Positions 13,291 to 53,995 of a stretch of DNA of 64,000 nucleotides are shown piece by piece. Position 1 is the stretch's first letter. Every line of letters starts with the position of its first letter. The position numbers and the translations under genes are program-made. Where the stretch lies: positions 59,706,212 to 59,770,211 of the forward strand of contig CM069870.1 of the NCBI GenBank assembly GCA_036172665.1, given 5' to 3'. The DNA is from Prosopocoilus inquinatus. Lineage: Eukaryota; Arthropoda; Insecta; Coleoptera; Lucanidae. The notes below the pieces were generated by a model that made no database searches, was not told the DNA's origin, and saw nothing but the letters and a program-made list of their open reading frames with translations.

Positions 13291-15495
13291 TTAATTTAAA
13301 TTTAGTTCGAGGCGCTCAAACACCGCACTCAAGTCTATTAAATGTTCCTCAAACGTTCTTGATATTATTATAATATCGTCCATATAAGCTGCAACTGTTC
13401 GATCACCTAACCCCGTACGAAATCGGTCCATGAGCCGTTGAAAGGTCATAGGGGCATTAGTAAGTCCGAAAGGCATTCTAGTGAAGCGATACGTACCGAA
13501 GGGACATACGAAACACGTCTTATCGCGGTCTTGTTCGCGTACGCGCACTTGCCAATAACCAGACTGTAGATCTAACGTTGTTATATAGTTCGTTTGTTTC
13601 TCAGCATACAAAAGTTCATCCGTACGCGGCATCGGGTAACTGTCCTTCACTGTGATTTCATTTAGGCGCCGATAATCGACGCAGACGCGCACTCCGCCGT
13701 TCTTTTTGGGCACCATTATAACAGGCGAGGCCCAAGGCGATTCACATTCCTCGATCACACCATCCGTCAGCATTTTATCTAATTCTTGTCGTAGTATTGT
13801 TTTGTTAGCCGAACTCATCCGGTAAGGAGGCACTGCAATCGGAGGATGTGTTTCCGTGTCGATAACGTGTTCCGCGAATGGCGTCGGTTCTCCCCCTGGC
13901 CGAAAAATGTGGGAATGCTTAACTAAAAATTGTTCTAGTCGAGCCCTCTCTTCCGTTGATAACTCTTGTGCTTCATCCGGGCGCAATTGAACTTCATTTA
14001 TCATAGCTTGTTGCACAGTAATCGATTCAACTACGTTACCGGGCAGTATTACATCTTCCGCAAATTCGTATTCAATTTCCCGTTGATCGGCGAAAGACCA
14101 CGTATGTTGCCCGTGGTTGATAATTATTCCAGCCTTTTGCAAAAAATCGGTTCCAAATAACGTGCGATTATTCTGAAGTTCAGGCAAGATTATAAATTCT
14201 ATCGGTATTATTCGATATTTCACTTCAATGTCAACTTTAGCAATTAGGGCATCTTCGTCTCTCGGTTCACCGTCGGCGTACGTAAGTTTTATTTGACAAT
14301 TCTTGAAAGGGTGACCTTTCTCTAACAAGAAGTCGTACACACGGCGTCCCGCGAGGCTAGCCTGAGCTCCAGAATCGGCAAATGCGACGCCGTTGCATCC
14401 GAGTAATTTAAATGGCAATAACAGTCGAACTCCCGATATACCGCTAGCAGTTAATTGCATAATCTGTGCATAATTTAACAATACGGGTGCGTTTTCGTTT
14501 CGCTGGCTTGAAGTTCGTGGCGTTTGACTAGGATTACACGTCGGACAATTTGCTCTGATTTTCCCGAGTGCGCCGCATCCGTAACATTTGACTTGCGTAG
14601 CAACTTTCGTATGTACCATATTCGACGTATCGTCCTGAAAGGTTTTACTGTGTTTTTTCAATTTCGAGCGGCAGTCGTCAATCGTATGACGAAAATTTCG
14701 ACAGTAAGCACAGCGCGGACGTGGTTTTTGTTGCGGTTCGAGTTGCTTTTGTTTGACGATGCAGTTCGAAGCATTCGTTTCATGCAGTTGTTGTTCGGTT
14801 TCTCTCGCTAATTTTAATAGGTCATCGAAAGTTTTTACATCTTCGCGTTTTACCCATTTTCTTATTCGGCGGTGTAGTAAACCGTAGATCATGTCGATCT
14901 GTATTTCAACTGTGGGAGCATTTTTTAATCGGGATATTAATGCTCTTACTTTACCGACAAAGATATCGGTGGAAGTGTTTTCACCTTGTTCTTCTGAAAA
15001 AAGCTCGCGATAAATTTTGTATGCTGGCTTATCGGGCCCGTATGTGTTTTTTAATGCATCTATCGCAGTTTTCCAATCCGTTGTTAATGCTTTTATTCCT
15101 TGCCACCAAGTTGCTGCTGATCCCGTTAATAACATGGACAGTTCGCGGATCGCGTTCTCGTCACTAATTCTGACGCAATCTTTGTAAGTATTAATAGCGT
15201 CGATAAACGCTTCAACGTTATCATCTCGCGACCCCGAAAACCGAGACGCACATTTAGCGAAGTTACCCTGCATAGGTTGCGCTTGCGTTTGCGATACGTC
15301 TGTAGGTTTCAAATTTATTTGAAATTGTTGCAGTTGTTGATTAACTTGAGCTTGTACGCCCGCCAACAACTGTTGTAACTGATCCGCAGTCATTTGCACT
15401 ACAGGTGAATCGTTATTCGTGGTTTCGGTCGTTTTAGGTAGAGTTAAGTTCGATTTATTTTGGAGTCTTTCGCTACGTCGAACACCGTCCTGCAT
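13291..15495 (-). CDS. Gypsy Gag-Pol, truncated within RT
   Basis: Uninterrupted fusion of 734 codons. Gag: coiled or Gln-rich N-terminus, then a retrotransposon capsid region (residues about 85-235; SRFSGSRDDNVEAFIDAI, GSAATWWQG). Two CCHC-type knuckles follow. The first is canonical (CAYCRNFRHTIDDC). The second, CYGCGALGKIRANC, has Lys where the zinc-binding His is expected. The aspartic protease active site is Asp374 in DSGA. The RT region begins near residue 590 and holds MPFGLTNAP and the catalytic YMDD at 704-707. The last residues (ELNLN) are read from LTR sequence, because the rest of Pol has been deleted. RNase H and integrase are absent, so the element cannot transpose on its own. 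Confidence 0.9.
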   Translation of the reverse strand: MQDGVRRSERLQNKSNLTLPKTTETTNNDSPVVQMTADQLQQLLAGVQAQVNQQLQQFQINLKPTDVSQTQAQPMQGNFAKCASRFSGSRDDNVEAFIDAINTYKDCVRISDENAIRELSMLLTGSAATWWQGIKALTTDWKTAIDALKNTYGPDKPAYKIYRELFSEEQGENTSTDIFVGKVRALISRLKNAPTVEIQIDMIYGLLHRRIRKWVKREDVKTFDDLLKLARETEQQLHETNASNCIVKQKQLEPQQKPRPRCAYCRNFRHTIDDCRSKLKKHSKTFQDDTSNMVHTKVATQVKCYGCGALGKIRANCPTCNPSQTPRTSSQRNENAPVLLNYAQIMQLTASGISGVRLLLPFKLLGCNGVAFADSGAQASLAGRRVYDFLLEKGHPFKNCQIKLTYADGEPRDEDALIAKVDIEVKYRIIPIEFIILPELQNNRTLFGTDFLQKAGIIINHGQHTWSFADQREIEYEFAEDVILPGNVVESITVQQAMINEVQLRPDEAQELSTEERARLEQFLVKHSHIFRPGGEPTPFAEHVIDTETHPPIAVPPYRMSSANKTILRQELDKMLTDGVIEECESPWASPVIMVPKKNGGVRVCVDYRRLNEITVKDSYPMPRTDELLYAEKQTNYITTLDLQSGYWQVRVREQDRDKTCFVCPFGTYRFTRMPFGLTNAPMTFQRLMDRFRTGLGDRTVAAYMDDIIIISRTFEEHLIDLSAVFERLELNLN

Positions 15496-21366: not shown

Positions 21367-23479
21367 TAAAGAGCGGATTCTATGCTAAATGCATATTGCA
21401 TGCATATTTTGCATATTTGAGTATTTTGTTCAATTTTCGCATATTTCTTAAAAACGTGCATATATATGCAAATTTGAAAGAATTTGTGTCGAAGTGAGTA
21501 AATTTTTTCCTGAATTCTTAATTCGTCAGAACATGTTGTTGCATTAATTAGGGTCTAGTTTGCACCCTTCTTGGGCTTAAGCAGGCAGAATTTTCCAAGT
21601 AGTGAATTAGGGATTTCCAAGTACTTTCTTAACGATGCGGTGGGGCGTTCATGTTTGCAATATTGTTTCATCACTTCTTCACGGATTATTAGTCGGTTAT
21701 TGCTGCGAACGTTTAGTTCTTCCGTAAAAGTATTTTTGTTTGTGAGAAGTGCAATATGCCGAAAGACAATTCGAGCCTGGTTAATTCCTGGATCAGAAGC
21801 TATCCCGAGCTTGCTTACACCAATGGAAGCGTATTCTGTAAAGCCTGTAGTAAAATGGTAAGTTTTAAGTTTGTTTTCTTCCTCCTTAGGTAAATATTTG
21901 CTTGGTTCTTGAATATTGAAAGTTCAGACAGTTTAAAAAATTCAAGTTCTTGTTGTAGATACCAACCCAACGAAAATTTTCGGTCACACAACATGTCGGG
22001 ACAGAACTACACAAGTCAAAATGCAAGAAGATGAATGAATCGAAAACATTTCAATTACCCTAAATGTTCCCGATGAAAGTACGTTAAGAAAAAATTACGT
22101 GCCTCGCATCTACAACGATACTCTAAAAGAAGTCAAGAAAATCGTAGAAAATCAATATATTTATTTTATTGTGGATGAAACTACTGATTCTTGTGGGCGT
22201 TACATTGTAAATTTGTTAATAGGGTTTTTGCGGGAAGATAAACCTAGTGAATCTTATTTAATAGCCTGTACACAGTTAGACAAAACTAATCATTTAAGTA
22301 TTTTAAGATCTGTTAATGAATGTTTTATGAAATTTTTCTCACCTAATGTAGTTCCTACTGAAAAAATTTTACTTATGGTATCAGATGCTGCCCCTTACAT
22401 GGTTAAAGCCGGGCAGCAATTTAAAACAATTTATAAAAATTTAGTTCACGTGAGTTGTTTAGCTCATGGATGTAACAGAGTAGCTGAACATATTAGATGT
22501 GAATTTTCTGATGTAAATCTACTAATTAGTACCATTAAAAAAATATTTGTCAAAAGTCCCCTACGAGTTCAGTTGTACAGGGAAAAATTGCCGAATGTAC
22601 CTTTACCTCCCGAACCAGTGTTGACTAGGTGGGGAACTTGGTTGGAAGCGGCAATGTTTTATGCTGAACATTTTGTAGCAATTAAGGAATTGGTTGTAGA
22701 GTTTAATGCCCAAGATAGTGCTGCTATTGCAAAGGCACAAAATATTGTAACAAAAACTTCATTGGCAAATCAACTGAACTTCATCAAAATGCATTACAGT
22801 TTTGTAATACAAACTATAAACAATTTAGAAAAACCGAAAATGTCTTTAATAGAATCCGTTAAAATTATTAAAGAATTTAAAGAGAATATTTCAAAAGTTC
22901 CAGGTAAAATCGGCAGTTCAGTAAATAAAAAATGTTTATCCGTTTTAGATAAAAATAGCGGCTTCAAAACCCTTGAGGAAATTTACGAAATTTTGAATGG
23001 AAACTTTGAAATTGACTTAAGTGTAGAATTTTCAGCTATGAGTCACTTTAAATATGCTCCAATTACCTCCGTGGATGTTGAAAGAGGAGTTTTTCAATTT
23101 ATAAAAATATTTTGTCAGATAAAAGGCAAAATTTCCTGGTAGAGAACTTGGAAAAACACATTGTTGTAAATTATAATCGAAGATTTTTTTAGTCGTTATA
23201 ATATTTACTTAATAATGTACATACATAATATACATACTTCCTTCATATAAGCGTTTACAAATAAATGTAAATAAATTGTATAAAATATAATGTTTTTTAT
23301 TTGAATAAGAATGCCCATAAAACACAGTAGACCAGTTATTGCATTATTTGAAGTGTTCGGCCTATCTTGCACATATTTCGCCATTTTTAGTGCATATATA
23401 TGTGCATATTTCATCATTTTTTAGTGCATATATATGCGCATATTTCACCAAAATTACTCGCATATAAATCCGCTCTCTA
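21367..23479 (+). mobile_element. hAT element 1 (BED-finger type)
   Basis: The terminal repeat is TAAAGAGCGGATT on the left and TAGAGAGCGGATT on the right (minus strand). It is flanked by a perfect 8-bp duplication, ATGATGAA (21359-21366 and 23480-23487). Sub-terminal regions are rich in TGCATATATATGCA-like motifs, probable transposase-binding repeats. It is inserted between two units of the hammerhead repeat. Confidence 0.92.
21756..23192 (+). pseudogene. hAT transposase pseudogene with BED zinc finger
   Basis: Exon 1 (21756-21857) encodes MPKDNSSLVNSWIRSYPEL ... VFCKACSKM. The donor is GTAAGT at 21858. An intron of about 101 bp ends TTGTTGTAG at 21958. Exon 2 resumes with IPTQRKFSVTQHVGTELHKS, completing the CxxC...HxxxxH BED finger across the splice. 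The frame then breaks: roughly 100 codons are missing before STLRKNYVPRIYND. The long frame 22099-23142 carries the RNase H-like hAT core (IVDETTDSCGRYIVNLL, SDAAPYMVKAG, CLAHGCNRVAE, TRWGTWLEA). A frameshift after VDVERGV displaces the C-terminal dimerisation region, whose true end is near 23192. It belongs to the same family as 42993-44532 and resembles CGGBP1-like hAT proteins. Confidence 0.85.
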
Positions 23480-23975: not shown

Positions 23976-25500
23976 TTCAATAATAATAATGTTTATTGGT
24001 TCAAAAAAAAGTAACCAAACGGTTCTAGATCAGCAGTCCCAAAAGGATATGCTGCTCTTCCTCTAAAACCTTTAGGTTGAATGTAAATACAAATAAATAC
24101 ATTGTAAAATGGCAGTAAACAAAAATGACAAATATGATAGATTAATAAGAGATTAAGTATTAGTTTACATAAATATTTCTGAGGAAGCTATTGTACATAA
24201 TGAATACAAATAATACAAAAATCAAACATCTTTGAGAAATACAGATACTGAGTTAATAATCAGAAAAATAACCACAGCACAAACTACCAAAAAGTCACCA
24301 AAAAGGTAGAGTTATTGAAAACGAAGCAACATCTAACGCCTGAAAGATGAAACTGTAACAGATTTAAGATTAACAGGAATATTATTATAAGTTTTAACTA
24401 TATTGTACGTAAACGATCTGTGATAAAGAGAAGTACGATGCGCAGGAGGCGTAAGTAAACCTTTATTCCTTATATTTATGTTGTGAACTGACGTTCTGAA
24501 AGAAATTTTATCGTAAAGGTAAGGAGGTATTTCACTTTGTATAATTTTATAAAAAAATACAGCAGAGTGCAACTGACGTCGTTGGATCATATTTAACCAA
24601 TTTGCCTTTGCAAAAAAATGTGAGGTATGGTCCCTGCGCCTAAGGCCGTATATAAAACGCAAACAAGAATTTTGAACTTTCTGAATTCTGGATATGTTGA
24701 CACTGTCCAAGCACGGACCGTAGATCACATCGCCATAATTAAACTGCGAGAGTACTAAAGAGTTGCATAACATTTTGCGAGCGTCCATGTTCAGGAATTC
24801 TTTGCTGTTGTAAAGTATTTTCAATTTACAATAGGATTTTTGGATTAATTTACTTACGTGTGTTTTAAATCTCAGATTTGTGTCAACATAAAGACCCAAA
24901 TTTTTAGCGCAATCAGTAATTACTAAAGATGTGTCTTTAACACATATATTTATTTTATTTACTATTGTACTGCGCGCCTTATTTCTGTCAAATACAAGTG
25001 CACAACATTTATTAGTATTTATTGCTAAGCAATGATCTGCGCAAGTAGTGATAATTTGATCCAAATCAGAGTTAATTTGTGTAATAGCTTCATCAATATT
25101 ATTTAGATCAAAATGATGCATAAGTTGAGTGTCATCGGCATATATTTGACATTTACAGAATTCAAGGTTATTGAAAATAAAACTAGTGTAAATTGAATAT
25201 AGAATTGGCCCGAGGATACTTCCCTGAGGAACCCCCGATTTAAGTTCTTGAGATATTGACTTAGTATTTTTGTACACGACTTTCTGGAACCTATTCAATA
25301 AGTAACTACTGAAAAATGCAACTGCCGAATCGCTAAGACCAATGTAATGAAAAATGGATAAAAGTAAATTATGGTCAACCGTGTCAAAAGCCTTAGAAAA
25401 ATCAAGTAGAACTAGCACTGTTATTTTATGGTAAACGTCACAGATTATTGACAGTTTATGAAACAACTTGCTTTGAATTTTTTTTCCTATTAACCTTATG
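23976..25500 (-). mobile_element. Non-LTR retrotransposon, 5'-truncated
   Basis: The minus-strand 3' UTR ends at a short (ATT)n tail (23976-23989), abutting hammerhead copy D. The coding region starts abruptly in RT near 25490, where unrelated sequence begins; 5' truncation is normal for target-primed insertion. The protein is of the same lineage as that at 40160-41960, which also ends in (ATT)n. Confidence 0.8.
24333..25500 (-). pseudogene. Non-LTR reverse transcriptase, C-terminal part
   Basis: Encodes the palm and thumb of a Jockey/CR1-like RT: LVLLDFSKAFDTVDHNLL (first catalytic Asp), GVPQGSILGPILYSIYT, and YADDTQL (catalytic Asp pair). It then has the C-terminal domain NSCLRFIYGLRRRDH, WLNMIQRRQLHS and PPYLYDKISFRTS. 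Endonuclease and the RT fingers are missing. The terminal residues VSSFRR stop early compared with the sister element, where the frame continues about 10 codons, so a small frameshift is likely. The open frame extends upstream to 25604, but that part (MAQARSFFCG...) is foreign sequence fused by the truncation. Confidence 0.85.
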
Positions 25501-25942
25501 CCATGGTGAAAGAAACCCAACCGTTGCAATAAGATATCACGAGCGTAACAAAAGGAGCGCTTAACGCGTTTTGACCCACAAAAAAAAGAACGGGCCTGCG
25601 CCATCCGTAACCTACGGTATATCTGAAGCTGCGTCTCTCTCGGAGATTACGATGTGAAGAAAAGCTGCGTAACAATGCCCACTCAGTGGAGTCAGGGTGG
25701 AGCAATTCAAAAGGTCTTACGATTAAGGGCACCACCCAGCAATTTTTACGCAACCTATAAGTATCGGTGATGCACAGCCGGGAAAATGTACCCCTATTTG
25801 TTCCCGAAAGAGGCAATACCCCATGACCAGCTTCTCCGTTGGCATACCGCAAGTGGCGATCGTTAGGGAATACAAATAAAAATGGATTCCCTGAAACCCG
25901 TCCCTAACAATACATATACATCCCGACCAAAGTAATCACTAA
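25501..25942. other. Unassigned, possibly fragment of another element
   Basis: Relatively GC-rich block with a 118-codon minus-strand frame (25496-25852) of unknown type. No motif supports a function. Confidence 0.35.
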
Positions 25943-28400: not shown

Positions 28401-28988
28401 AAAAATAAAGTATTAATAAATATTGCATACAAAATACTAATCAATGTTCAAGTTCTTCATTCATTTACACTGACCTTTGTATTAAAAAAGACGAACTCCC
28501 TTCCTGACTTTTCCCTAATATTATGGACCTTTTGAATCTCCTGACATCTCCTGGTTTTTTAGATTTTCACGGTGAGTGGAGACCCTGATGATGCAAGTAC
28601 TTCAGGCACGTCTTATTATTTTATAATTGCAATCACACTGAGGTTCCCTTTCTAATTTTAATTAATTATTCTTTTGTATAGAATTCCGGTTTCTTACACT
28701 AACTTTTTTTTACCAGATATTCTAAAATTGATAAACTAATCTTGCATTTACATAGTTAATTTTAAATAACTTTTTTCCTATTCATATTATTTATGTGACC
28801 CAGTTAGTTACTCAGCCGTTGTAAAAAAAACCATCCACTGGCAGATGGCATGACAGTATTTATTTATTTCTCATGCCTAAATGATACAAGTCGCTCACAC
28901 ACTTGTCTGTGTTGAGAAATCAATTTTACTTCTTACGTTTTTCTTGCATCTAGTGCAGAACAGACCCACGGAATGTTTTTTTTTAAGA
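28401..28988. other. Unassigned AT-rich DNA
   Basis: No gene recognised. It probably includes the decayed 5' end of the mariner that follows. Confidence 0.35.
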
Positions 28989-29825
28989 AACTTTCTTTGT
29001 TTGAGCGCGCTTGGCAGATTATCTGAGGAACTTACCATTTATTTTCGTGCCATGATTTTTTACGTATTCAAATGTGGTCTAACGCCGAAACAATGCCTCG
29101 ATCGGCTTCATTTGGCTTTTGGAGATGAAGCACCATCAAAGAGCAGTGCTTATAATTGGTTTGTCGAATTCCAGCGTGGACGTACCTCTCTCAGTGACGA
29201 ATTTCGTGAAGGTCGTCCATCAACATCTGTTGTTGCCACTAATATAGATGCTGTGCGTGAAATGCTTGAGCGAGATCGACATGTGAGATACCGTGAGATT
29301 CAAGGATCCTTACGCATTAACATGAAAGCAATACACCAGATTTTGCATGATCATTTGAATGTACGAAAGCTTTGCAGTCGTTGGATCCCACACAATTTAA
29401 CAGATGCGCAAAAGCAGGGTCGTGTCAAATGGTGCGAAGAAATGCTCAAGAAATTTAATGGAGGTCGTTCAAATTTAATTTATAACATCGTTACTGGTGG
29501 CGAAAGGTGGATCTATTAGTACCAGCCAGAAAGTAAACAACAATCTACCGTTTGGGTATTTCAAAATGAACCAAAACCAACAAAAGTTGTCCATTCACGC
29601 AGTGCTGCGAAGCAATGATTGCTTGTTTCTTTGGTTAACTGGACATGTAGCATCCGTGACTTTAGAGGATCGAAAAACCGAGAATGCTGATTGGTATTTG
29701 TTGATCAAATAAGAAGAAACAATCGAAATCGACGAATTATTCTCCATCATGACAACGCCAGCTCTCACTCAGCCCGTCAAACAGTTGATTTTTTGTTATC
29801 AACTTTGTTATTCACCAAGGTCAAT
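28989..29825 (+). pseudogene. Mariner transposase pseudogene, C-terminus lost
   Basis: A second mariner, unlike the one at 1384. The recognisable protein starts near LSEELTIYFRAMIFYVFKCG, continues through AYNWFVEFQRGRTSLSD and GRPSTS (linker), HQILHDHLNVRKLCSRWIP and VTGGERWIYYYQPESK. The first catalytic Asp (normally TGDE) is Gly here. Several frameshifts follow from 29515. The second Asp remains in ILHHDNASSHSARQ (about 29737-29780). The protein ends near 29825 before the PYSPDL block and third Asp, where copia-related sequence begins. The open frame starts at 28881, but its first 30 or so codons do not resemble mariner. Confidence 0.85.
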
Positions 29826-40159: not shown

Positions 40160-41960
40160 TCTCTTAAATTAGAAAAAAAAGGCCCTTTTTGATCATATTA
40201 CCAGCAAACGCAACAATACAACTCTGTGGAAAAATCTAGCCCTTCTTGGCTTCAGCAAAAATAGTAGTCATAATATACCAACATATCTTGCAGATGTAAA
40301 CAAAATTAGTAACTACTTTCTTAACAGCATCCCGTCTTCTAATCCTGCTAGTCAATCATTGTACTCTTATGAAGTAAATTTTGAAAATGAAACCACGTTT
40401 TCTTTTCAAACTGTAGATACTGAATCTATTTTCCGTATCATTAACAGTGTAAGTTCTGCAGCAACTGGATCTGACGATATTAATATTACAATGATAAGGT
40501 TATGTTGTCCTTTAATAATTCCATATATTACACATATAATTAACTCGTGTATTATCAGTCACTCGGTTCCACTCATCTGGAAACATGCTTTAATTCATCC
40601 TCTGCCCAAAGTTAAAGAGCCGGCGTCAATAAAGGACTTACGTCCTATAAGTATATTGCCAACTATGTCTAAAGTATTTGAAAAAGTTATACAATCTCAA
40701 CTTTATAACTATGTAGAGACCGCTCAAATTTTGCCAAGTGTACAGTCTGGCTTCAGAGCAGGTTTCAGTTGTACTATTGCTTTACTTAACGTAACCGATG
40801 ACATTTTGAAGGTATGATAATCGTTTGATAATCGTCAAATAACAGCTCTTATTTTATTAGATTTCAGCAAAGCGTTCTATACTGTAAATCATAATATTTT
40901 ATGTTCCCTGTTACAACATGTAGGAATCACCAAAGAATCTGCTGATCTAATTAAATCTTACCTAACCAAACGAATCCAGACTGTGGTTATTGGGTCATCT
41001 TTTTCAAATGCGCTTGCCGTTACTCAGGGTGTTCCTCAAGGTTCGGTAATTGGACCTTTACTATTCTCCCTGTATACAACTAAATTTTTATCTGTTATAA
41101 AGACGTGCAAAGCACATGTTTTTGCGGATGACACGCAATTATATTTTTCCTTCGATCCATCTAACTGGCGTGAAGCTAATTCATTCATAAATGATGACTT
41201 CAAATCATTGTTTGCTGAGGCTGCTAAACATTGTCTAACCTTAAATACTTCCAAATCTCAGTTATTACTCTTTGGAAACAATAATATCAATAATATAGCA
41301 AATAAATTTAATGTAAAATTAAATGACGTCGGTATTCCAATTTCCAATAAATCTAGAAACCTCGGATTGATAATAGATAATAGTTTCCGTTATCGTGAAC
41401 AAATTTCAAAATACATTACTAATGCTTACATACAACTAAGGAAACTGTTTCCGTTTCGAGGTGTTTTAAATATAGAAACAAAAAAACGTCTATGTGATGC
41501 TCTTGTATTGTCGTTTGTATATTGTTCTCCCGTTTATCATTTGGCTTTGGATTATTATACAAAAAACCGCACACAAAAAATACAAAATTCATGTTTACGT
41601 TTTATATATGGCATTAGAAAATATGACCACATTTCACATAAATTACGTGACATTGGTTGGCTTAACATGGCTAACCGACGGGAGTTACAAACTATAACAT
41701 TATTTCATAAGATAATTATGTATAAAACACCACCATATTTGTACAATAAAATTCGTTTCAGATCAGATGTACATAATCTTACCACCAGATTTCGTGGTTT
41801 GATTTCACCACCTCCGCACAGAACTGCTTTTTACGAGAGATCTTATTCATTTGCTATTTACAATAAATACAACAATTTAGCATTCGAATTAAAAAATCTA
41901 GATTTGAGAGTTTTTAAAGTTAGACTCAAAAATGCGTTATACCTAAGGCAGAATCATTAA
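40160..41960 (+). pseudogene. Non-LTR reverse transcriptase
   Basis: Fingers and palm in 40359-40817: LIHPLPKVKEPASIKDLRPI, SILPTMSKVFEKV and QSGFRAGFSCTIAL. A stop and frameshift near 40815-40830 break the frame, which resumes with ALILLDFSKAFYTVNHNIL and TQGVPQGSVIGPLLFSLYT. The catalytic FADDTQL is near 41120. The first catalytic Asp (normally F-D-T-V-D-H) is altered: Tyr-Thr-Val-Asn-His replaces Asp-Thr-Val-Asp-His, while the Asp in LDFSKAF is intact. The C-terminal domain 41580-41960 is complete (NSCLRFIYGIRKYDH, PPYLYNKIRFRSD) and ends in LYLRQNH. Confidence 0.85.
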
Positions 41961-42825: not shown

Positions 42826-44911
42826 TAAAGACCGGATTTACATGTGCTAAAAAAGTGGAAAATAAGTTTTTTTTATGCGATTAAAATAGATCAAAATATG
42901 GATATTATATGCGATAAAAATTTTATTTTACTTATACTTTAGAATAATAAAAACATAAATTGTTTCATATAAGTAATTTTAACACTTAACACTTAAATAG
43001 TAGGATTACAAAATATAATCAACAGTTGATTTAAATTATTTGGGGTAAAATTTTGTCGTCTGTCTGACAAAATATTTTTATAAGAGGAAAACGAACGCTC
43101 GACACCGCATGAAGTAATGGGCGCAAATTTCATGGATGCTACATCTTTGGGGTCCATGTCCAAATCCTCTTCACTTTGACCTTTTAAAACTAAACAGATT
43201 TTCCTCATTTTATTGTAGTCAGGATTACGTAATAGAACCTTGTCTAATTTTTCCATTAACTTTTCTCCTATCTCCCCTGGAATTGATTTTACACTTTCAA
43301 TTGCATCATCGACCACTTCAAAAGAATCTAATAGAGCCGTCTGGGATGATTCCAACTTTTTAATGGTGGATATTAAAACCGAAAAATGAGTTTTAATGAA
43401 TGCTAATTGATTCCCGATGTTTGTGTTCGACATGCATTCCTTACAAATTCTTAAAGCCGCTGAATTGGAATCATCCAATTCTAAGAAAATTTCCTTTAAT
43501 TGTTTAAAGTTATCTGCGTAAAAATTTGCTGCTTCAAGCCACGTACCCCATCTCGTAATTATTGGTTCTGGTGGTAATGGCAGGTCAGCAGCTAATTCTT
43601 TATAGTGTTGTATACGCAGTGGGGCTTTAAGAAACGCCTTTTTTCCGTTATTGATCAACTTATTTACTGTTGGGTATTCTAGTCGCACCAATTCAGCGAG
43701 CCTATTCATTGCGTGAGCCATACAAGTGAAGTGCATCAGATTTGGGTAAAACACCTGTAAAGCCTGTCCTGCTTTTATCATGTAGGCTGCTGCATCAGAC
43801 ACCATTAGTAATATATTTTCCGATTTAACTTGATTAGGTGCATATAAAAGTGTCAAGCTGTCGTTAATAATACGTGCGATCGTTGAATGATTTGTTTTTT
43901 TTCCAAAACTGCACTATTTACCAAATAAGGTATTGGTGCAACTGTGTTGCTTAATACTCCTGCTAACATATTTGCTACATAACGACCGCAGGCATCTGTC
44001 GTTTCATCAACTACTATATAAATATTGTTGTCGCTAAGCTTCTCTCTTATTTTCTTCATCCGTTGCTGGTAGCATATACTTAGATAGTTTTTCCGCAAAG
44101 TCGATTCATTTGGAATATGACGATTGCAATATTTTTCCAAAAAAGTTCGAAAACTTGCTTGTTCAAGTTTATGCCAAGGAATGTTTGACTCTGCCATAGC
44201 ACTGCACAAGTCTAAAAAGAATTCATTTCCTGTGTCACTGCCCTGTGAGTTACTGGCTGTTGAAGAAATAAAAGACTGCTTAAAGTTAGATACATCTTTT
44301 CTCCGACTCCTTATGGAGGTTTGTAGCCAAATGTTGATCAATCTGGTACTTTTGGTCTGACGATGACACCTTAAAATATTGTCAAAATGAAAATGTGATT
44401 TTTAAGAGAATTTGTAAGGTGTCTACCTGTTTTGAGCATGCGTTGCAAAAATTAACTTTTCCATCTGTAGTTAGATGTTTAGATGCTTTAATCCATTTTT
44501 TCAATAGATCAAGAGGATGCTACTTTCGGCATTTTGAAAAGATAAGCACTGAATTTATTTCGTCTTTAAATTTAATAAGAAAATAACAACTAATTCGCGT
44601 TGATAAATACACTAGTCACTAGTCACACACATTCACGGAGTAAAATAAAGTGGCCAGACGTTGAGGAGAATAAATTACTTCTTGGAAAAGCTGCAGACTT
44701 GAATATTGACCGTATATTGAATTATAATGTTATTTATATCAATATATGGATAAATAAATAAATATGCGCTAAAAGTCTAAAATATTAAGTTATATGCGAA
44801 ATAAAACTACCATTTTTGGGCTTCTCTAATCGACAAACATATAAATACAAAACGCCAAGTTTAGGTATGTTAGCGTAAAAAACTTGTAAAAACTTATAAA
44901 TCCGGTCTCTA
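42826..44911 (-). mobile_element. hAT element 2 (BED-finger type)
   Basis: The ends are TAAAGACCGGATTTA on the left and TAGAGACCGGATTTA on the right (minus strand), very like those of element 1. A perfect 8-bp duplication GTTATAAA flanks it (42818-42825 and 44912-44919). Length is 2086 bp. Confidence 0.93.
42993..44532 (-). pseudogene. hAT transposase pseudogene with BED zinc finger
   Basis: Two exons on the minus strand. Exon 1 (44532-44427) starts MPKVASS, suffers an early frameshift, and encodes WIKASKHLTTDGKVNFCNAC and SKQ before the donor GTAGAC. A 57-bp intron (44426-44370) ends TTTTAAG. Exon 2 completes the BED finger (QIDQHLATNLHKES) and continues in frame through NESTLRKNYLSICYQQRM and IVVDETTDACGRYVANML. 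A frameshift near 43855 separates this from 43856-42993: SENILLMVSDAAAYMIKAG, FTCMAHAMNRLAELV, PIITRWGTWLEAANFYA and the C-terminal SCGVERSFSSYKNILSDRRQ (hAT dimerisation motif). It keeps about 100 codons that element 1 lacks. Intron position is shared with element 1. Confidence 0.88.
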
Positions 44912-47258: not shown

Positions 47259-47395
47259 CACAGTTGTTTTATTATTTTTCAAAACCAAAACTCCTAGCAA
47301 AGGCATCATGTCGCTCAGATTGCTAACTTAATACTGAGAGATGAGCGAATGCGGATAAAGATGGCAACTAACTTACGCAAACTCCCAGTAAATAC

Positions 47396-47721
47396 TGTGG
47401 CGAGTCAACCGGACTCAGCGAAAGGCGTCAAGAAGTCGGTCCGCTTGATGTGTCATCGGCCGTCACGCGTTCGGGGCCTGTATCGAGCAAACTAGAATCT
47501 TCCAGCATCGAGACTTCCAGACGCCTGCAGTAGATATAAAATCGCCCGGAGTTGACTCACCAGGCAGTCGAATTCGAACAGCGATAGTCGAAGTTAGATT
47601 TTAGTGTGAAAATAAATTGTTAGAAATAAATTAGTTTTTAAGCTTTATTAAATTACGGTTAAGTTTGTATCGAGTGTTTTATTCGTTTAAATAAATAAAC
47701 TCAAACCCTAGAAACGTAACA
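47396..47721 (+). repeat. 5' LTR of the macrodomain gypsy
   Basis: Starts TGTGGCGAGTCAACCGG and ends CCTAGAAACGTAACA. It contains GATATAAAATC (TATA box, 47535-47540) and, downstream, several AATAAA-type signals (for example in AAATAAATAAACTC). Confidence 0.97.
47535..47540 (+). promoter_or_regulatory. LTR TATA box
   Basis: TATAAA within GTAGATATAAAATCGCC, about 140 bp into the 326-bp LTR, suited to start the genomic RNA. The 3' LTR has the same site. Confidence 0.65.
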
Positions 47722-47818: not shown

Positions 47819-48301
47819 ATGGCTACGAGAAAAGTGTTGTTGAAAGACTTAAAAGTGGCCGAATTAAAAACCGAATTGGAAGAACGAGAGTTAGAAACCT
47901 GTGGTTTGAAAGGCGCACTTCAACAGCGTCTCCGATCCGATTTGTTGACAGCTGGTGAAGATCCAGAGACGTTCCTTTTCGAAATTTCGTGTGGTCCCGT
48001 CGATTTTAATAAAATCTTGAAGGATGAATTTCGAGAACAATCCAGAAATTTGGACGAGAAGTTTCAAGAACAGTCTGGAAATTTAGAGAAGAAACTTCTA
48101 GAACAATCTGGAAATTTCAAGGACGAACTTCGAGAACAATCCAGAAATTTGGACGAGAAGTTTCTAGAACAATCTGGAAATTTCAAGGACGAACTTCGAG
48201 AACAATCCAGAAATTTGGACGAGAAGTTTCTAGAACAGTCTGGAAATTTAGAGAAGCTTAGAGAACAATCCAGAAATTTAGAGGATAAGCTTCTAGAATA
48301 A
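47819..48301 (+). CDS. Gag N-terminus: SAP domain and hendecad coiled coil, ends at premature stop
   Basis: 160 codons, in the same frame as the long ORF at 48344. Residues about 8-45 form a SAP domain (LKVAELKTELEERELETCGL, then KGALQQRLRSDL), a helix-hairpin-helix that normally binds AT-rich scaffold or nuclear DNA. From about residue 66 an 11-residue unit of the type xEQSxNLxxKL repeats and predicts a long rod-like coiled coil. The frame ends at TAA (48299-48301) at a position where the sister units have a Gln codon, so this is a nonsense substitution and not the natural end. Start: the only early ATG, preceded by CAAAAACA-like context, about 100 bp after the 5' LTR. Confidence 0.85.
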   Translation: MATRKVLLKDLKVAELKTELEERELETCGLKGALQQRLRSDLLTAGEDPETFLFEISCGPVDFNKILKDEFREQSRNLDEKFQEQSGNLEKKLLEQSGNFKDELREQSRNLDEKFLEQSGNFKDELREQSRNLDEKFLEQSGNLEKLREQSRNLEDKLLE

Positions 48302-48525
48302 TCTGGAAATTTCAAGGAAGAACTTCGAGAACAATCCAGAAATTTGGACGAGAAGCTTCAAGAACAATCCAGAAATTTAGAGGAGAAGCTTCTAGAACAA
48401 TCTGGAAATTTCGACAAATTACAAAATAAATTGTTGGAACAATCTAGAGACTTAGACGAGAAATTTCGAGAGCAATCCAGAAATTTCGACGAGAAATTTC
48501 TAGAAGAAACAAGGAACTTGCAAGA
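48014..48525 (+). repeat. Hendecad (11-codon) tandem repeat in gag
   Basis: About fifteen 33-bp units encode REQSRNLDEKF, LEQSGNFKDEL and similar. Nearly identical pairs of units (66 bp) at 48125-48240 show recent expansion. The premature stop at 48299 falls in the ninth unit. Confidence 0.9.
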
Positions 48526-51500
48526 AAATGTGGAAGAAATCATATTCCAGCAGGATAATAAAATCAAAAATCTGGAACGAATCATGGCGGGGTTGCGAGT
48601 GTTCGGGGATCAGCCACCAGTAGAAGTACTAGAAAAGAATGAAACCCGAATTGTGGAAGGACCAGCAGAAAATTCTAAACTGAAGATAAAACCACCAACG
48701 TTCGATGGAAAGTCTTCTTGGCCCAACTACTTCAAACAGTTCGAAGCAGCAGCAAAGGCGAACAGATGGACGGCCAGCGAAAAAGCCACTTCGTTAATTG
48801 TGGCCTTGAGAGGGGACGCTATCGATGTGCTACAGACGATGCCGCCAGAGGAACAAGAAGACTTCTACAAGCTGGTGAATAGGATGGAAATGCGTTACGG
48901 ACAGGCCCATCTGACCGAGGTATACCATGCGCAGTTGAGGAATCGCTGTCAGAAATCCGGAGAAACTCTTCAGGAATTCGAAGCAGACGTTGCGCGTCTG
49001 GCCCAGTTGGCATATCCCACAGCTCCTGTTGAATTCCTCAAATGTTTGACGGTGCAGACCTTCATAGATGGAATCCGTGACCCAGACAACCAGCAGGCAT
49101 TGAGAATGACCCATCCGAAGACGTCCAAGAACGCATTGGCTTATGCCTTGGAATTTGAAGCGGCGAGACGAGTCTCAAGAGGGCATGTCAAGGTGCGAGC
49201 GGCTATGGACTTCCAAGAGGAAGAAGAGGAAGAATCCGCTAACGCCAAGGTGGGATCTGCTATAAAGGAGCGACCCAGGGAGTATACCACCGCCGAGGAT
49301 GTTCGCCGCATTGTGGAACAGGTCTTCAAGCAGAAGAAACCGCTGGTGTGGCCAGGAGGAAGGACATGTTCGCAGGCGATGTCCAAAGCCCAGACAGGAT
49401 CCAAGGAAGCCACAGTTAAACTAAGCCGGGTCGGTGCAGAGGGGCAAACGTCGACCCGTATTCAAAGGCCCCCAAAGACGAAAGCCAACCAAGTAATATC
49501 CCTACGGCAGTTAACCAGCAGTATCTTCGTGGATGTTACCATTGATGACATTCCTCACACCATGTTGTTGGATACGGGTGCGACGAAGACCATCCTAAGA
49601 CCCGACGTCATTAAGTCATCTGGACGCACCGAGCCGACCAAGTGGAGACTGAAAACTGCAACTGGAACATCAGCAACTGTCCACGGTGAAGTAGAGGTTA
49701 TCATCACCATTGGTTCAACTCCAATAAAACACCGTGCACTGGTGGCAGATATAGAGGACGAGGCAATTTTGGGCATGGACGTCATGTGTGCCCACGGGTT
49801 CCAATTGGACTTAAAGCGTGGCGTAATGGCGGTCAATAATGAGGAGTTGGTTCTTCATCAACGAGGGGACGTGGCCGCTCGAGTAGTCCTCGCTGAAGAC
49901 GTTGTATTACCCAGCAGGACTGAGGTTATCGTCGACGCAAAACTGGACGGTGTTTTTCAAGATGGGCAAGTCATTATGGTTGAACCTAATACTGATGATC
50001 AAAGGATTGGAAGAGGAGTCCTCGTTGGGAAAATGTTGTTGACGGCGAAGAAGGAAGTACCTGTCCGCCTGATGAACGTCAATTGTTTCTCTGTCAATAT
50101 CAAGAAAGGAACAATCTTGGGAAGCTGCACCATGGTGTCCTCCATCTCCCGGCAACTTGAAACAAACGTGCCAGAAGCGAAAGTCCCAAAGAAATTATGG
50201 GAAATGGTTATGTCAACAGCCCAGGAATTGACTCCAGACCAGAAGACAAAAGCAAAGAATCTGATCGGCCGCTATCAAGACGTATTTGAGGTAGAAAATG
50301 GATCCAAGGGAAGAACTGATGTCGTGAAACACAAAATAGAGACTGGAGAAGAAAGACCTATCCGTCAAGCCCCAAGGCGATTACCGTTGGCGAAGCGTGA
50401 GGAAGCGGAACGCATTATTCGCGAGATGGAAAAGGATAATGTAATAGAACCATCAAGCAGCCCGTGGGCGTCACCAGTAGTGCTTGTGAAGAAGAAGGAT
50501 GGGTCCACCAGGTTCTGTGTAGACTACCGGTTACTCAATAATGTCACCAAGAAGGACAGCTATCCCTTGCCCCGGATTGATGATACCCTGGACACCCTGG
50601 CCGGCTCAAAGATCTTCTCAACTTTGGACTTAAAGAGTGGATATTGGCAAGTGGAGCTGGCGCCCGAAGATCGAGAAAAGACGGCGTTTTCCATTGGTAT
50701 GGGTCTATGGCAGTTCACAGTGATGCCATTCGGGTTATGTAATGCCCCAGCGACATTCGAGAGGTTAATGGAGACGGTTCTGAAAGGTCTGTCCTGGACA
50801 ACGTGCATGGTGTACCTTGACGACATAATTGTCGTGGGAAAGACGTTCGACGACCACCTAAGGAACCTGGAAGGAGTGTTCCAGCGGCTTCGCGGAGCTG
50901 GACTAAAGCTTAGCCTCAAGAAGTGTCACCTGTTCCAGAAGGAAGTGAATTACCTGGGGCACATTGTTAATGGAAACGGAATCGCCGTGGACCCTGTGAA
51001 GATTCAGGTGGTGAAAGACTGGCCAACTCCCACAAATAAACACCAAATAAGGAGTTTCCTTGGCCTGTGCACTTACTATCGGCGCTACGTTCCTGGATTT
51101 GCAGACATTGCTAAGCCGTTAACAAAACTCACTGAAGAAGGTCGTCCATTTGAATGGGACCAACAGTGTCAAATTGGCTTTGAACAACTAAAGCAGTACT
51201 TGGTTAGTGCTCCTATTCTGAGTTATCCTCTCCCGGAAGGCAAGTTCGTCGTGGACACAGATGCTAGCAACGTTGGGATTGGTGGCGTACTCTCCCAGAT
51301 ACAAGAGGGGCAAGAGAAGGTGATCGGCTACTTCAGTAAAGTCCTATCAAAGCCGGAACGAAACTATTGCGTCACAAGAAGGGAATTGCTAGCCGTCGTA
51401 AAAACGATAGAACACTTCTACAAGTACTTGTATGGTAGACGCTTCCTGCTGAGGACCGACCACGCCGCTCTAAAATGGCTTCTCCGTTTCAAGAACCCAG

Positions 51501-53803
51501 AAGGGCAAGTTGCACGATGGATCGAACGACTTCAGGAGTACGATTTTGAAATTCAGCATCGGGCAGGAACTAGCCATCGAAATGCCGATGCTCTGTCGAG
51601 AAGACCCTGTGCCGAAGACTGTAAGCACTGTAGTCGTTTGGACGAGAAAGTAGCCACGACTGCGAGAACAGCCATTGTTGATGACAAATGGCAAGGCGAA
51701 GAACTGCGAAGAGACCAGGAAAACGACCCGGATTTGAAATTAGTGCTAGAATGGAAAAGCAGGGACGCGAGGCCTACCTGGGAAGAGGTAGCACCATGTG
51801 CACCGTCCGTAAAATCATACTGGGCGCAGTGGGACTCCATAGTGTTGGATCGTGGTCTTCTGAGACGAAGCATAGAGAATCAGGAAGGCATGGAACAGAA
51901 GACACAGTTACTGATCCCCAAGAATAGGGTGCCAGAAGTTCTGAGGGAACTTCACGATGGAACTTCGGGAGGGCATCTGGGAGTTAAGAAGACTATGGAG
52001 AAGGTGCGCGAAAGATTTTACTGGGTGAACTGCAAGGAAGACGTGAAGGATTGGTGCAGAAAGTGTGCAGTCTGCGCAGCCAGTAACGGCCCCCACAGGC
52101 GGGGTAAGGCTCCCATGAGACAGTACAACGTTGGAAGTCCTTTTGAGAGAGTTGCCATCGATGTAGCCGGCCCGTTTCCAGAAACGAATGGTGGAAACAA
52201 GTACATCGTCGTGGTAATGGACTACTTTAGCAAGTGGGTTGAAGCTTACGCCCTACCTAACCAAGAGGCAGTCACTATTGCGGAAGTCCTTGTCAGGGAA
52301 TGGATCAGTCGGTATGGTGCACCTATGGAACTGCATTCAGACCAAGGAAGGAACTTTGAATCGGCCTTGTTCAAGAACGTGTGTACTCTGCTCGGCGTAC
52401 GAAAAACTAGAACAACTGCACTCCACCCACAGTCGGACGGAATGGTGGAAAGGTTCAATAGAACCATCAACCGACATTTGTCCAAGGTCGTTTCCAATCA
52501 TCAGAGGGACTGGGACACGTACATCCCCCTGTTTCTAATGGCATACCGCTCATCTGTTCATGAGACAACAGGGGAGACTCCCGCGAAAGTGGTATTCGGG
52601 CGAGAGCCGAGACTGCCCTGCGACCTGAAGTTTGGTGTGAAGCCTGGCGAAGTCTCTGCCGACGAAGATTACGTGAGCAAATTACGCAGGAAAATGGATG
52701 ATATCCACAACCAAGTGCGTCACAATATACAGACGGCCAGCGATCGGATGAAGGAGCACTATGACATCAACGCTCAACACGGGGGATACCAACCTGGAGC
52801 ACTGGTCTGGCTTTATAACCCCCAAAGACGTCGAGGCCTCTCCCCAAAATTACAGACCTCTTGGGAAGGTCCTTACAAAGTGATGAAACGGATCAACGAC
52901 GTCGTTTACCGCATCAGGAAGGTCCCCCATGGCAAACCCAAAGTAATCCACTTCAACCGGATAGCCCCTTACCATGGAGAAGCAGATGAAGGGACAGTAC
53001 AAAGGGCGCAAGTTTCCGAAGTGAACTTCGAAACCTTCATGTCTCAACACGCCGAAGGAAGCAAGGCACGGTTTGGAGTGACCACGGAGAAGCAACAAGA
53101 TCTCTTTAAAGTGCCACTGGAGTACAGTCTGGCCCACTGCGTAGCAGAAGACCTGAAAATGTCCAAAGGAATCGCTCAGGTGTTTAAGAAGAAATTTGGC
53201 CAAATCGAGGAGCTACGAAGACAGCATCCCGTGGTAGGCAAGAGCTTGCAGATCATTGATTCGACGGCAGATCGGAGGCGCCACGTGCATTATTTAGTCA
53301 CTAAGAAGACATCAAGCGGTAAACCTGACTATGTGACTATGTGGAGAGCCCTATATAGCCTGAGGAGACAGCTAATAGAGAACCATCAGATGAAGTTAGC
53401 CATCCCCAAATTGGGCTGCGGATTGGACGGACTAGACTGGAGAGTAATTCGAAGCATGCTGGAAGTCATCTTCCACAGAACGGGAATTGAAGTCCTAGTC
53501 TGCAGCCACCACCCACAGGCAACAGTCAGCAACAGCAAAACCGTAGACTGTTACTTCTTCCAGGCGGGAAGTTGCAAGAATGGGCCAGCATGTAGATTCC
53601 GACACCCTCCTTCAAGACTATCACCAGGAACATTTCGAGACGAAACGTTTCTAAGAAGGGGGCAGTGTGGCGAGTCAACCGGACTCAGCGAAAGGCGTCA
53701 AGAAGTCGGTCCGCTTGATGTGTCATCGGCCGTCACGCGTTCGGGGCCTGTATCGAGCAAACTAGAATCTTCCAGCATCGAGACTTCCAGACGCCTGCAG
53801 TAG
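48344..53803 (+). CDS. Gypsy Gag-Pol with C-terminal TARG1-like macrodomain and CCCH zinc finger
   Basis: 1819 codons from an internal Met; the frame is continuous with 47819. Residues 1-60: rest of the coiled coil. 110-275: Gag capsid (PPTFDGKSSWPNYFKQFE, FIDGIRDPDNQQAL). No CCHC knuckle is seen. Protease: Asp410 in LDTGATKTIL. RT: about 665-850, catalytic YLDD at 824-827. RNase H: Asp971 in VDTDASNVGIGG. Integrase: HHCC zinc module about 1200-1247, then Asp1273, Asp1333 and Glu1369 (D35E spacing). GPY/F region: WEGPYKVMKRI near 1505. Macrodomain: 1577-1722. CCCH finger: 1736-1754. The last 46 codons are read from the 3' LTR. All enzymatic centres look intact. Pol normally ends soon after GPY/F; the extra 300 residues are an acquisition. 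Confidence 0.95.
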   Translation: MDEKLQEQSRNLEEKLLEQSGNFDKLQNKLLEQSRDLDEKFREQSRNFDEKFLEETRNLQENVEEIIFQQDNKIKNLERIMAGLRVFGDQPPVEVLEKNETRIVEGPAENSKLKIKPPTFDGKSSWPNYFKQFEAAAKANRWTASEKATSLIVALRGDAIDVLQTMPPEEQEDFYKLVNRMEMRYGQAHLTEVYHAQLRNRCQKSGETLQEFEADVARLAQLAYPTAPVEFLKCLTVQTFIDGIRDPDNQQALRMTHPKTSKNALAYALEFEAARRVSRGHVKVRAAMDFQEEEEEESANAKVGSAIKERPREYTTAEDVRRIVEQVFKQKKPLVWPGGRTCSQAMSKAQTGSKEATVKLSRVGAEGQTSTRIQRPPKTKANQVISLRQLTSSIFVDVTIDDIPHTMLLDTGATKTILRPDVIKSSGRTEPTKWRLKTATGTSATVHGEVEVIITIGSTPIKHRALVADIEDEAILGMDVMCAHGFQLDLKRGVMAVNNEELVLHQRGDVAARVVLAEDVVLPSRTEVIVDAKLDGVFQDGQVIMVEPNTDDQRIGRGVLVGKMLLTAKKEVPVRLMNVNCFSVNIKKGTILGSCTMVSSISRQLETNVPEAKVPKKLWEMVMSTAQELTPDQKTKAKNLIGRYQDVFEVENGSKGRTDVVKHKIETGEERPIRQAPRRLPLAKREEAERIIREMEKDNVIEPSSSPWASPVVLVKKKDGSTRFCVDYRLLNNVTKKDSYPLPRIDDTLDTLAGSKIFSTLDLKSGYWQVELAPEDREKTAFSIGMGLWQFTVMPFGLCNAPATFERLMETVLKGLSWTTCMVYLDDIIVVGKTFDDHLRNLEGVFQRLRGAGLKLSLKKCHLFQKEVNYLGHIVNGNGIAVDPVKIQVVKDWPTPTNKHQIRSFLGLCTYYRRYVPGFADIAKPLTKLTEEGRPFEWDQQCQIGFEQLKQYLVSAPILSYPLPEGKFVVDTDASNVGIGGVLSQIQEGQEKVIGYFSKVLSKPERNYCVTRRELLAVVKTIEHFYKYLYGRRFLLRTDHAALKWLLRFKNPEGQVARWIERLQEYDFEIQHRAGTSHRNADALSRRPCAEDCKHCSRLDEKVATTARTAIVDDKWQGEELRRDQENDPDLKLVLEWKSRDARPTWEEVAPCAPSVKSYWAQWDSIVLDRGLLRRSIENQEGMEQKTQLLIPKNRVPEVLRELHDGTSGGHLGVKKTMEKVRERFYWVNCKEDVKDWCRKCAVCAASNGPHRRGKAPMRQYNVGSPFERVAIDVAGPFPETNGGNKYIVVVMDYFSKWVEAYALPNQEAVTIAEVLVREWISRYGAPMELHSDQGRNFESALFKNVCTLLGVRKTRTTALHPQSDGMVERFNRTINRHLSKVVSNHQRDWDTYIPLFLMAYRSSVHETTGETPAKVVFGREPRLPCDLKFGVKPGEVSADEDYVSKLRRKMDDIHNQVRHNIQTASDRMKEHYDINAQHGGYQPGALVWLYNPQRRRGLSPKLQTSWEGPYKVMKRINDVVYRIRKVPHGKPKVIHFNRIAPYHGEADEGTVQRAQVSEVNFETFMSQHAEGSKARFGVTTEKQQDLFKVPLEYSLAHCVAEDLKMSKGIAQVFKKKFGQIEELRRQHPVVGKSLQIIDSTADRRRHVHYLVTKKTSSGKPDYVTMWRALYSLRRQLIENHQMKLAIPKLGCGLDGLDWRVIRSMLEVIFHRTGIEVLVCSHHPQATVSNSKTVDCYFFQAGSCKNGPACRFRHPPSRLSPGTFRDETFLRRGQCGESTGLSERRQEVGPLDVSSAVTRSGPVSSKLESSSIETSRRLQ
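53072..53509 (+). other. Macrodomain, TARG1/OARD1-like (ADP-ribose hydrolase)
   Basis: About 146 residues, close to the whole length of TARG1 (152 aa). In order: a DLF motif (the adenine-contacting Asp strand), SLAHCVAEDLKMSKGIAQVF, KKKFGQIEEL, the YLVTKK strand, KPDYVTMWRALYSLRRQ, and IPKLGCGLDGLDW, ending VLVCSH. The residues equivalent to the catalytic Lys84 and Asp125 of human TARG1 are Lys1654 (53303-53305) and Asp1695 (53426-53428). The family removes ADP-ribose from acidic residues and from nucleic-acid ends and binds poly-ADP-ribose. Assignment is by family motifs; activity is inferred. Confidence 0.88.
53549..53605 (+). other. CCCH zinc finger at the Pol C-terminus
   Basis: CYFFQAGSCKNGPACRFRH has the exact C-x7-C-x5-C-x3-H spacing of RNA-binding CCCH fingers (Cys1736, Cys1744, Cys1750, His1754). 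It may replace the absent CCHC knuckle of Gag for RNA binding, or target the macrodomain. Same frame as Pol. Confidence 0.85.
53651..53665 (+). promoter_or_regulatory. Polypurine tract
   Basis: CTAAGAAGGGGGCAG directly before the 3' LTR, the usual primer site for plus-strand DNA synthesis. It also encodes Pol residues. Confidence 0.75.
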
Positions 53804-53991
53804 ATATAAAATCGCCCGGAGTTGACTCACCAGGCAGTCGAATTCGAACAGCGATAGTCGAAGTTAGATTTTAGTGTGAAAATAAATTGTTAGAAATAAA
53901 TTAGTTTTTAAGCTTTATTAAATTACGGTTAAGTTTGTATCGAGTGTTTTATTCGTTTAAATAAATAAACTCAAACCCTAGAAACGTAACA
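53666..53991 (+). repeat. 3' LTR of the macrodomain gypsy
   Basis: 326 bp; no difference from the 5' LTR was noticed on base-by-base reading. The Pol frame extends 138 bp into it before the stop at 53801-53803. Confidence 0.97.
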
Positions 53992-53995
53992 ATAC

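What the first reader, a model, noticed from the sequence alone, without database searches (positions are those of the whole stretch)
53072..53605. Gypsy retrotransposon encodes a TARG1-type macrodomain plus a CCCH finger
Seen: in one uninterrupted frame after the integrase and GPY/F region, Pol continues into a 146-residue macrodomain and then a C-x7-C-x5-C-x3-H finger. Known: the motifs SLAHCVAEDL, KKKFG, YLVTKK and GCGLDGLDW match the TARG1/OARD1 macrodomain class, which hydrolyses protein- and nucleic-acid-linked ADP-ribose. CCCH fingers together with ADP-ribosylation occur in antiviral PARPs such as PARP12 and ZAP. Inference: the element has captured an ADP-ribose hydrolase, possibly to counter PARP-based restriction or DNA-damage signalling during integration. 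I do not know of a described retrotransposon with this domain order.
Basis: partly seen in the sequence, partly recalled or inferred. Interest (0 to 1): 0.95.

Follow-up and report, generated by a model that had tools for sequence, protein, structure and literature searches.

The report
Insect retrotransposons carrying ADP-ribose erasers
Several families of jumping genes in one insect genome have a cellular enzyme domain that removes ADP-ribose marks built into their replication polyprotein, which suggests that such marks hinder these elements and that they carry a way to erase them.

The parts
47392..47395 (.). 5' copy of target site duplication ATAC
   Evidence: sequence
47396..47721 (+). 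5' LTR, 326 bp, TG...CA
   Evidence: 326 bp identical to the 3' LTR
48344..53803 (+). gag-pol open frame (1819 codons from TTG; first ATG near 48584); an in-frame stop upstream separates it from a 160-codon ORF in the repeat array
49565..49582 (+). aspartic protease motif LLDTGA
   Evidence: motif; only a sub-threshold Pfam gag-asp_proteas match at the cut end of the piece
50486..50968 (+). reverse transcriptase (RVT_1), YLDD at 50813
   Evidence: Pfam E 2.4e-38
51155..51541 (+). RNase H
   Evidence: Pfam E 4e-34
51914..52402 (+). integrase H2C2 zinc domain and first part of the core
   Evidence: Pfam E 1.6e-20 and 4.6e-12
52790..52975 (+). integrase C-terminal GPF/p58_C region
   Evidence: Integrase_p58_C E 9.5e-13
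53081..53503 (+). TARG1/OARD1-type macrodomain; Lys84-equivalent codon 53303-53305, Asp125-equivalent codon 53426-53428
53549..53605 (+). CCCH zinc finger C-x7-C-x5-C-x3-H, CPSF30-like
53653..53665 (+). polypurine tract AAGAAGGGGGCAG, inside the reading frame
   Evidence: sequence
53666..53991 (+). 3' LTR; the pol frame ends inside it at 53803
53992..53995 (.). 3' copy of target site duplication ATAC

Best explanation
A Ty3/Gypsy element carries, fused to the end of its integrase, an insect-type TARG1/OARD1 ADP-ribosylhydrolase domain plus a nucleic-acid-binding-type CCCH finger. It is one of seven groups in this genome in which such a domain was seen next to a retroelement integrase or protease (an eighth, E, by its flank), in three layouts. 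The domain is made with Pol, so it would reach the virus-like particle and the integration complex. There it would hydrolyse ADP-ribose that host PARPs put on exposed single-stranded element cDNA, on gapped integration junctions, or on Gag/Pol and nearby chromatin proteins, so that cDNA synthesis, integration or gap repair is not blocked. Shown: identity, fusion, recurrence, conservation of the catalytic Lys/Asp and pocket, several layouts. Inferred: catalysis, packaging, substrate and benefit.
Against: No activity test. Human active-centre Ser35 is Ala here; it is Ala or Gly in all 28 named insect OARD1 rows listed, whose activity I have not seen tested, while families E and F have Ser. Family E has Asn at the Asp125 position, so at least one group may bind rather than cut. 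At least two element proteins lack the finger (P0016, P0161), and so does family C. The selection ratios come from copies fetched by protein or profile similarity and are biased low; among A variants shared by two or more copies the macro ratio is 1.13 (four against one). In flies, loss of PARP-1 raises some gypsy-superfamily transcripts, possibly indirectly (PMC7712786, passages), which points to transcription rather than cDNA.
Confidence: 0.55

Rival explanations
1. Reader, not eraser: the macrodomain binds ADP-ribose or PAR and tethers the integrase (A, C) to sites of PARP activity such as breaks or active chromatin, as chromodomains tether chromovirus integrases (recalled).
For: In A and C the domain follows the integrase C-terminus, the place of the chromodomain in chromoviruses (recalled). 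Family E has lost the Asp125 equivalent but keeps the Lys.
Against: In B, B2, B', D and F it follows the protease, not the integrase. A pure reader need not keep Lys84, which is invariant in the 20-row set and present in each group's representative.
Confidence: 0.2
2. Counter-defence against a PARP-based antiviral response in which the target is ADP-ribose on Gag/Pol or on host restriction proteins, as with alphavirus and coronavirus macrodomains (function recalled), not DNA.
Against: TARG1 is about 11 Z units above the viral ones; CCCH-PARPs were not sought in the host. The two readings overlap and sequence cannot separate them.
Confidence: 0.2
3. Passenger: a domain picked up by chance and carried without benefit.
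For: The A copies read in this genome are very young (macro 99.3-100 percent identical to the window in 48 of 48 loci), so their intactness alone proves little.
Against: Macro identity of only 52-61 percent to element relatives with the catalytic and pocket residues kept, and presence in several backbones and layouts.
Confidence: 0.05

Closest known systems
TARG1/OARD1 (C6orf130)
   Same: Sequence, fold, Lys84, Asp125, Gly123, adenosine-pocket residues
   Different: The cellular protein is a stand-alone macrodomain; here it is part of Pol; Ser35 is Ala, as in the named insect OARD1 rows (Ala or Gly)
Macro-domain ORFs of fish epsilon-like endogenous retroviruses (Basta et al. 2009, as told in PMC4977317, passages; the original is not held)
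   Same: A retroelement that has taken up a macro domain
   Different: Told there as additional open reading frames in vertebrate retroviruses; here in frame within Pol of Gypsy-type elements, TARG1-type, in several layouts. I could not compare sequences
Chromoviruses (Gypsy with a chromodomain after integrase; recalled, one title in the listing)
   Same: Extra domain after the integrase C-terminus
   Different: Macrodomain plus CCCH instead of chromodomain (no chromo match)
DarG and phage TARG1-like proteins
   Different: Prokaryotic; not part of a Pol
CPSF30 (CPSF4) CCCH fingers
   Same: Best match of the finger (E 5.9e-16 over several fingers of one chain, best single finger 0.0018)
   Different: One finger only, in a polyprotein

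Membership tests
TARG1/OARD1 macrodomain | TARG1-class sequence and macro fold | tested here: met
TARG1/OARD1 macrodomain | Catalytic Lys84 | tested here: met
   Window residue K92 of the 53030 frame; 140 of 141 relatives
TARG1/OARD1 macrodomain | Catalytic Asp125 in the GCGLD loop | tested here: met
   Window D133 of the 53030 frame; 140 of 141; Asn in family E
TARG1/OARD1 macrodomain | Ser35 of the human active centre (not defining: 28 of 28 named insect OARD1 rows have Ala or Gly) | tested here: not met
   Ala in the window and in 133 of 141; insect rows
TARG1/OARD1 macrodomain | ADP-ribosylhydrolase activity | not testable with these tools
   needs an enzyme assay
Ty3/Gypsy LTR retrotransposon | LTRs, target duplication, polypurine tract | tested here: met
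Ty3/Gypsy LTR retrotransposon | PR-RT-RNase H-IN order with GPF/p58_C end | tested here: met
   (protease by motif and a sub-threshold Pfam match)
Ty3/Gypsy LTR retrotransposon | Placement in a named Gypsy clade by RT tree | not tested
   no reference RT set was used
CCCH zinc finger | Three Cys and one His with CCCH spacing | tested here: met
   C-x7-C-x5-C-x3-H, zf-CCCH above cut-off
PARP12/ZAP-like CCCH protein | Several CCCH fingers with WWE/PARP domains (recalled) | tested here: not met
   single finger; no WWE or PARP match in the Pfam scans of the pieces
Chromovirus | Chromodomain after integrase | tested here: not met
   no chromo match at E up to 1 in pieces 52400-53050 and 53030-53668
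Fish ERV with macro-domain ORF | Epsilon-like retrovirus with macro-domain ORF | not tested
   Basta et al. 2009 not held; no sequences compared

The most novel reading that the evidence does not exclude
LTR retrotransposons of insects have acquired a host TARG1 domain more than once, or swapped it among distant backbones and between two sites of the polyprotein, because ADP-ribosylation of retroelement cDNA or proteins by PARPs is a real restriction in these hosts; the element-borne domain is a dedicated counter-enzyme.
Probability: 0.45. Interest if true: 0.95.

Novelty: new variant of a known kind. Interest (0 to 1): 0.83.

Why it matters
Viral macrodomains are a known counter to PARP immunity (recalled), and TARG1 is reported to clean DNA. 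A DNA-capable de-ADP-ribosylase built into Pol of abundant, recently active elements, in several layouts, would make ADP-ribosylation a testable layer of transposon control in insects, and would give many natural variants of a TARG1 enzyme under selection.

Tried and rejected
PARP12/ZAP mimicry by the CCCH finger: rejected as stated, since the finger matches CPSF30. Annotation or assembly artefact: rejected, since copies with the same frame are spread over many contigs. Viral contigs: no relative; phages: only distant macrodomains. A single capture of the A family from a beetle OARD1: suggested (element macros one clade, 100/99; element plus insect cellular against the rest, 100/96), but made less simple once other families were added; sisterhood with beetle OARD1 was neither supported nor rejected (p-AU 0.456). 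One clade of all element macros is not rejected (p-AU 0.173; 0.21; without C 0.40), so the number of captures is open. Labels in these trees: six of the 18 rows called insect and seven of the 18 called other are of unknown organism and were labelled from their place. P0020, a long-branch row of unknown origin labelled 'other', fell among element rows and was dropped; some A rows were also dropped there to thin the set (15 database rows and L071, 12 database rows). The grouping of A with D/E went from 92/45 to 96/91 for A with D/E/F. L104, fetched as a possible finger-less family, turned out to be a damaged A copy. Literature: searches showed no report of a macrodomain in a Gypsy Pol (searches returned no paper, 13 returned five reviews that I saw as listing only, 76 listed 15 of 2,030); led to the fish ERV review. 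Most subscription papers are not held.

Full report

CATALYTIC RESIDUES. Human TARG1 uses Lys84 and Asp125, with Ser35 helping (PMC11488344, passages); the numbering along the human chain was recalled and fits the printed alignment. Among the 141 proteins returned by two searches, Lys84 and Asp125 equivalents are kept in 140 each and Gly123 in all 141; the four finger ligands are kept in 129-133, the rest mostly outside the alignment. These 141 include six that do not look like elements (P0017-P0022) and are dominated by Aromia and Molorchus, so they are not independent. In a thinner set of 20 element sequences, 22 of 139 columns are invariant, 20 as in human TARG1, including the Lys, Asp and Gly; twelve pocket and loop positions average 0.917 majority residue against 0.681 for all columns. 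Ser35 is Ala in the window and in 133 of 141; it is Ala or Gly in all 28 named insect OARD1 rows, so this looks like an insect trait rather than decay, although families E and F have Ser.

SPREAD OUTSIDE. The tail search returned 21 proteins; the search on the tail region of a half-length Pol query returned 197, of which 120 were listed; the profile search returned 1269 of all kinds, 120 listed. Named element-type hosts among the listed rows are Aromia, Molorchus and Exocentrus (Cerambycidae), Gonioctena (Chrysomelidae), Brassicogethes (Nitidulidae) and Pyrocoelia (Lampyridae). In Aromia, Molorchus, Exocentrus and Pyrocoelia the integrase end is in the same predicted protein; the Gonioctena and Brassicogethes proteins hold only the macro-finger tail. 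Many rows carry no organism. Of 241 retrieved proteins with a macro match, 134 have the integrase C-terminal region upstream. Against 19 element relatives compared by domain, RT is 81-86 percent identical (three proteins), integrase core and C-part 61-83, GPF 56-82, macro 52-61, finger and end 44-61, gag 48-60, and the linker before the macro does not align. So the macro changes faster than RT and about as fast as gag, but keeps its active site. P0016 and P0161 have the integrase end and macro but no finger.

COPIES IN THE HOST. The window lies in a 650-Mb assembly, G000. The macro query scored 150 of 1405 candidate places; all 150 are 98-100 percent identical and 149 have no stop. In 48 loci read, macro DNA is 99.3-100 percent identical to the window, integrase 96.5-100 in the 47 loci where it matched, and LTRs, in the nine loci where read, 91-98 percent. 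The family has burst recently. Open frames of up to 1992 codons are listed, so the window copy, which has a stop in a repeat array upstream of its long frame, is not the longest.

OTHER FAMILIES, THE MAIN NEW RESULT. Searching the same genome with other macro queries showed further retroelement-type polyproteins with a TARG1-type macrodomain. Their LTRs were not examined, and each search scored at most 150 of about 1300 candidates (135 of 135), so the counts are lower bounds. Layout 1, IN-macro-CCCH: family A (window). Layout 2, IN-macro without finger: family C (L091; H2C2, rve and p58_C upstream; nine places listed at E 1e-40 or better, seven at 96-100 percent). Layout 3, protease-macro, with RT after it where the read stretch reaches that far: family B (L081: Asp_protease_2 E 3e-11, Macro E 2e-10, RVT_1 E 2e-37; 14 full-length places at 91-100 percent); F (L105: protease, TARG1-type macro below Pfam's cut-off, RT; 23 places of near-equal score of which 17 have a 1764-codon frame, one locus read); B2 (L106, protease and macro; 10 places at 67-70 percent to B); B' (L100, L101, protease then macro; three places); D (L097, protease then macro; 16 places of 45, two of them partial). 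E (L098, three places) has a D-like sequence after the macro, but an A element sits directly upstream in the copy read, so no protease or RT was seen; it has Asn at the Asp125 position. Three of the 45 places and four partial places were not assigned. The macros of B, C and D hit TARG1 at 4e-37, 4e-42 and 5.5e-32. Among A, B, B', C, D and E representatives the macros are 38-54 percent identical, and 40-47 percent to the host's own OARD1; RT of A and B is 54 percent identical, integrase of A and C 42-45 percent, proteases of B and D 23 percent. A further Gypsy relic in the window (13291-15495, minus strand), whose RT is about as close to A (52 percent) as that of B, has no macro between protease and RT, and the window has no second macro match: the domain is not general to Gypsy.

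ORIGIN. The host's cellular OARD1 lies at G000:C5:3752892-3753236 with a second region at C5:3756537; it is 59 percent identical to Aromia OARD1 over residues 64-178 and its sister in the tree (100/97). Rooted on 18 OARD1 rows labelled non-insect (seven of unknown organism), the 21 element macros and 19 rows labelled insect form one side (99/93). A is one clade (99/97), D/E/F (99/96), B/B2/B' (99/82). A and D/E/F group together (96/91; in the smaller sampling A with D and E only 92/45) although one sits after integrase and D and F after protease. C lies in an unresolved fork (88/88) with the beetle OARD1 rows, Blattella and the A+D/E/F clade; B lies outside. A single clade of all element macros is not rejected (p-AU 0.21). 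So either one old capture was passed between backbones and between two insertion points, or there were several captures. The host is probably a beetle, by its OARD1 and by the named hosts of A relatives, but insect sampling in the tree is thin.

SELECTION. In 25 pairs of A and 12 pairs of B copies with 8 or more differences the nonsynonymous/synonymous rate ratio is 0.09-0.66 and 0.26-0.55; the pairs overlap. Among 48 A loci the variant-count ratio is 0.46 for the macro, 0.42 for integrase, 0.51 for GPF, 0.46 for the finger and 0.69 for the linker; for variants shared by two or more copies it is 1.13 for the macro on five variants. Loci were chosen by macro similarity, so these values are biased and only support the deeper conservation.

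MECHANISM. TARG1 removes thymidine-linked ADP-ribose from DNA, and the Lys84 mutant does not rescue (PMC8501950, passages). Exposed ssDNA is reported as the preferred substrate of PARP1-mediated DNA ADP-ribosylation, which TARG1 removes (PMC11102865, passages). RNA ADP-ribosylation on uracil has also been reported (PMC13036486, listing only). A retroelement makes ssDNA and leaves gaps at integration (established knowledge), and the host has PARP catalytic-domain matches at four loci, one with stops inside. Carrying TARG1 in Pol would put the eraser where the marks would arise. The layout after protease fits particle delivery and speaks against pure integrase tethering. Fly data show several gypsy-superfamily elements raised without PARP-1, perhaps indirectly (PMC7712786, passages). 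None of this shows activity or benefit; that is inference.

WHAT IS KNOWN. Reported earlier: macro-domain ORFs in fish epsilon-like ERVs (PMC4977317, passages, citing Basta et al. 2009, which I could not read). I saw no report of a macrodomain in a Gypsy Pol. Hence: new variant of a known kind, with the recurrence in several layouts as its most surprising part.

Noticed in passing
window 47957-48528: Array of 33-nt repeats in the leader and start of the gag frame, coding an 11-residue pattern (EQSRNLDEKLQ-like) that looks like a coiled coil to the eye; an in-frame stop lies within it in this copy.
   Followed up: partly
window 13291-15495 (-): Another Gypsy relic with gag, protease-like region and RT but no macrodomain; useful as a negative control.
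   Followed up: partly
G000:C9:28344896-28357708; C4:34671073-34677737; C5:48018850-48025480: A-family macros spaced about 6.2 kb apart, as expected for head-to-tail arrays sharing LTRs.
   Followed up: no
L098 (G000:C10:15663500-15665100): An A element appears to have inserted into a family E element right before its macrodomain; a similar neighbour pair of A-like and E-like hits lies on C6 near 36.69 Mb.
   Followed up: partly
L091:1860-2490: After the macro, family C carries repeats of an acidic motif (EDEIPLSEL) of unknown role.
   Followed up: no
P0151, P0153, L054: Cellular OARD1 of Aromia has a second conserved region after the macrodomain, found also in the host (34 percent) and perhaps Blattella; it looks macro-like to the eye, not tested.
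   Followed up: partly
G000:C5:47386768, 47398250, 47409732: Three family F places spaced exactly 11482 bases apart.
   Followed up: no
window 5706-8072, 24333-25604, 40359-41960, 22099-23142, 42993-44341, 28881-29519: Other mobile-element remains: RT fragments, DUF659 proteins and a mariner-type HTH.
   Followed up: no
phage records: TARG1-like proteins at 31-36 percent identity in Lactobacillus, Bacillus, Lysinibacillus and Fusobacterium phages and one uncultured phage.
   Followed up: no
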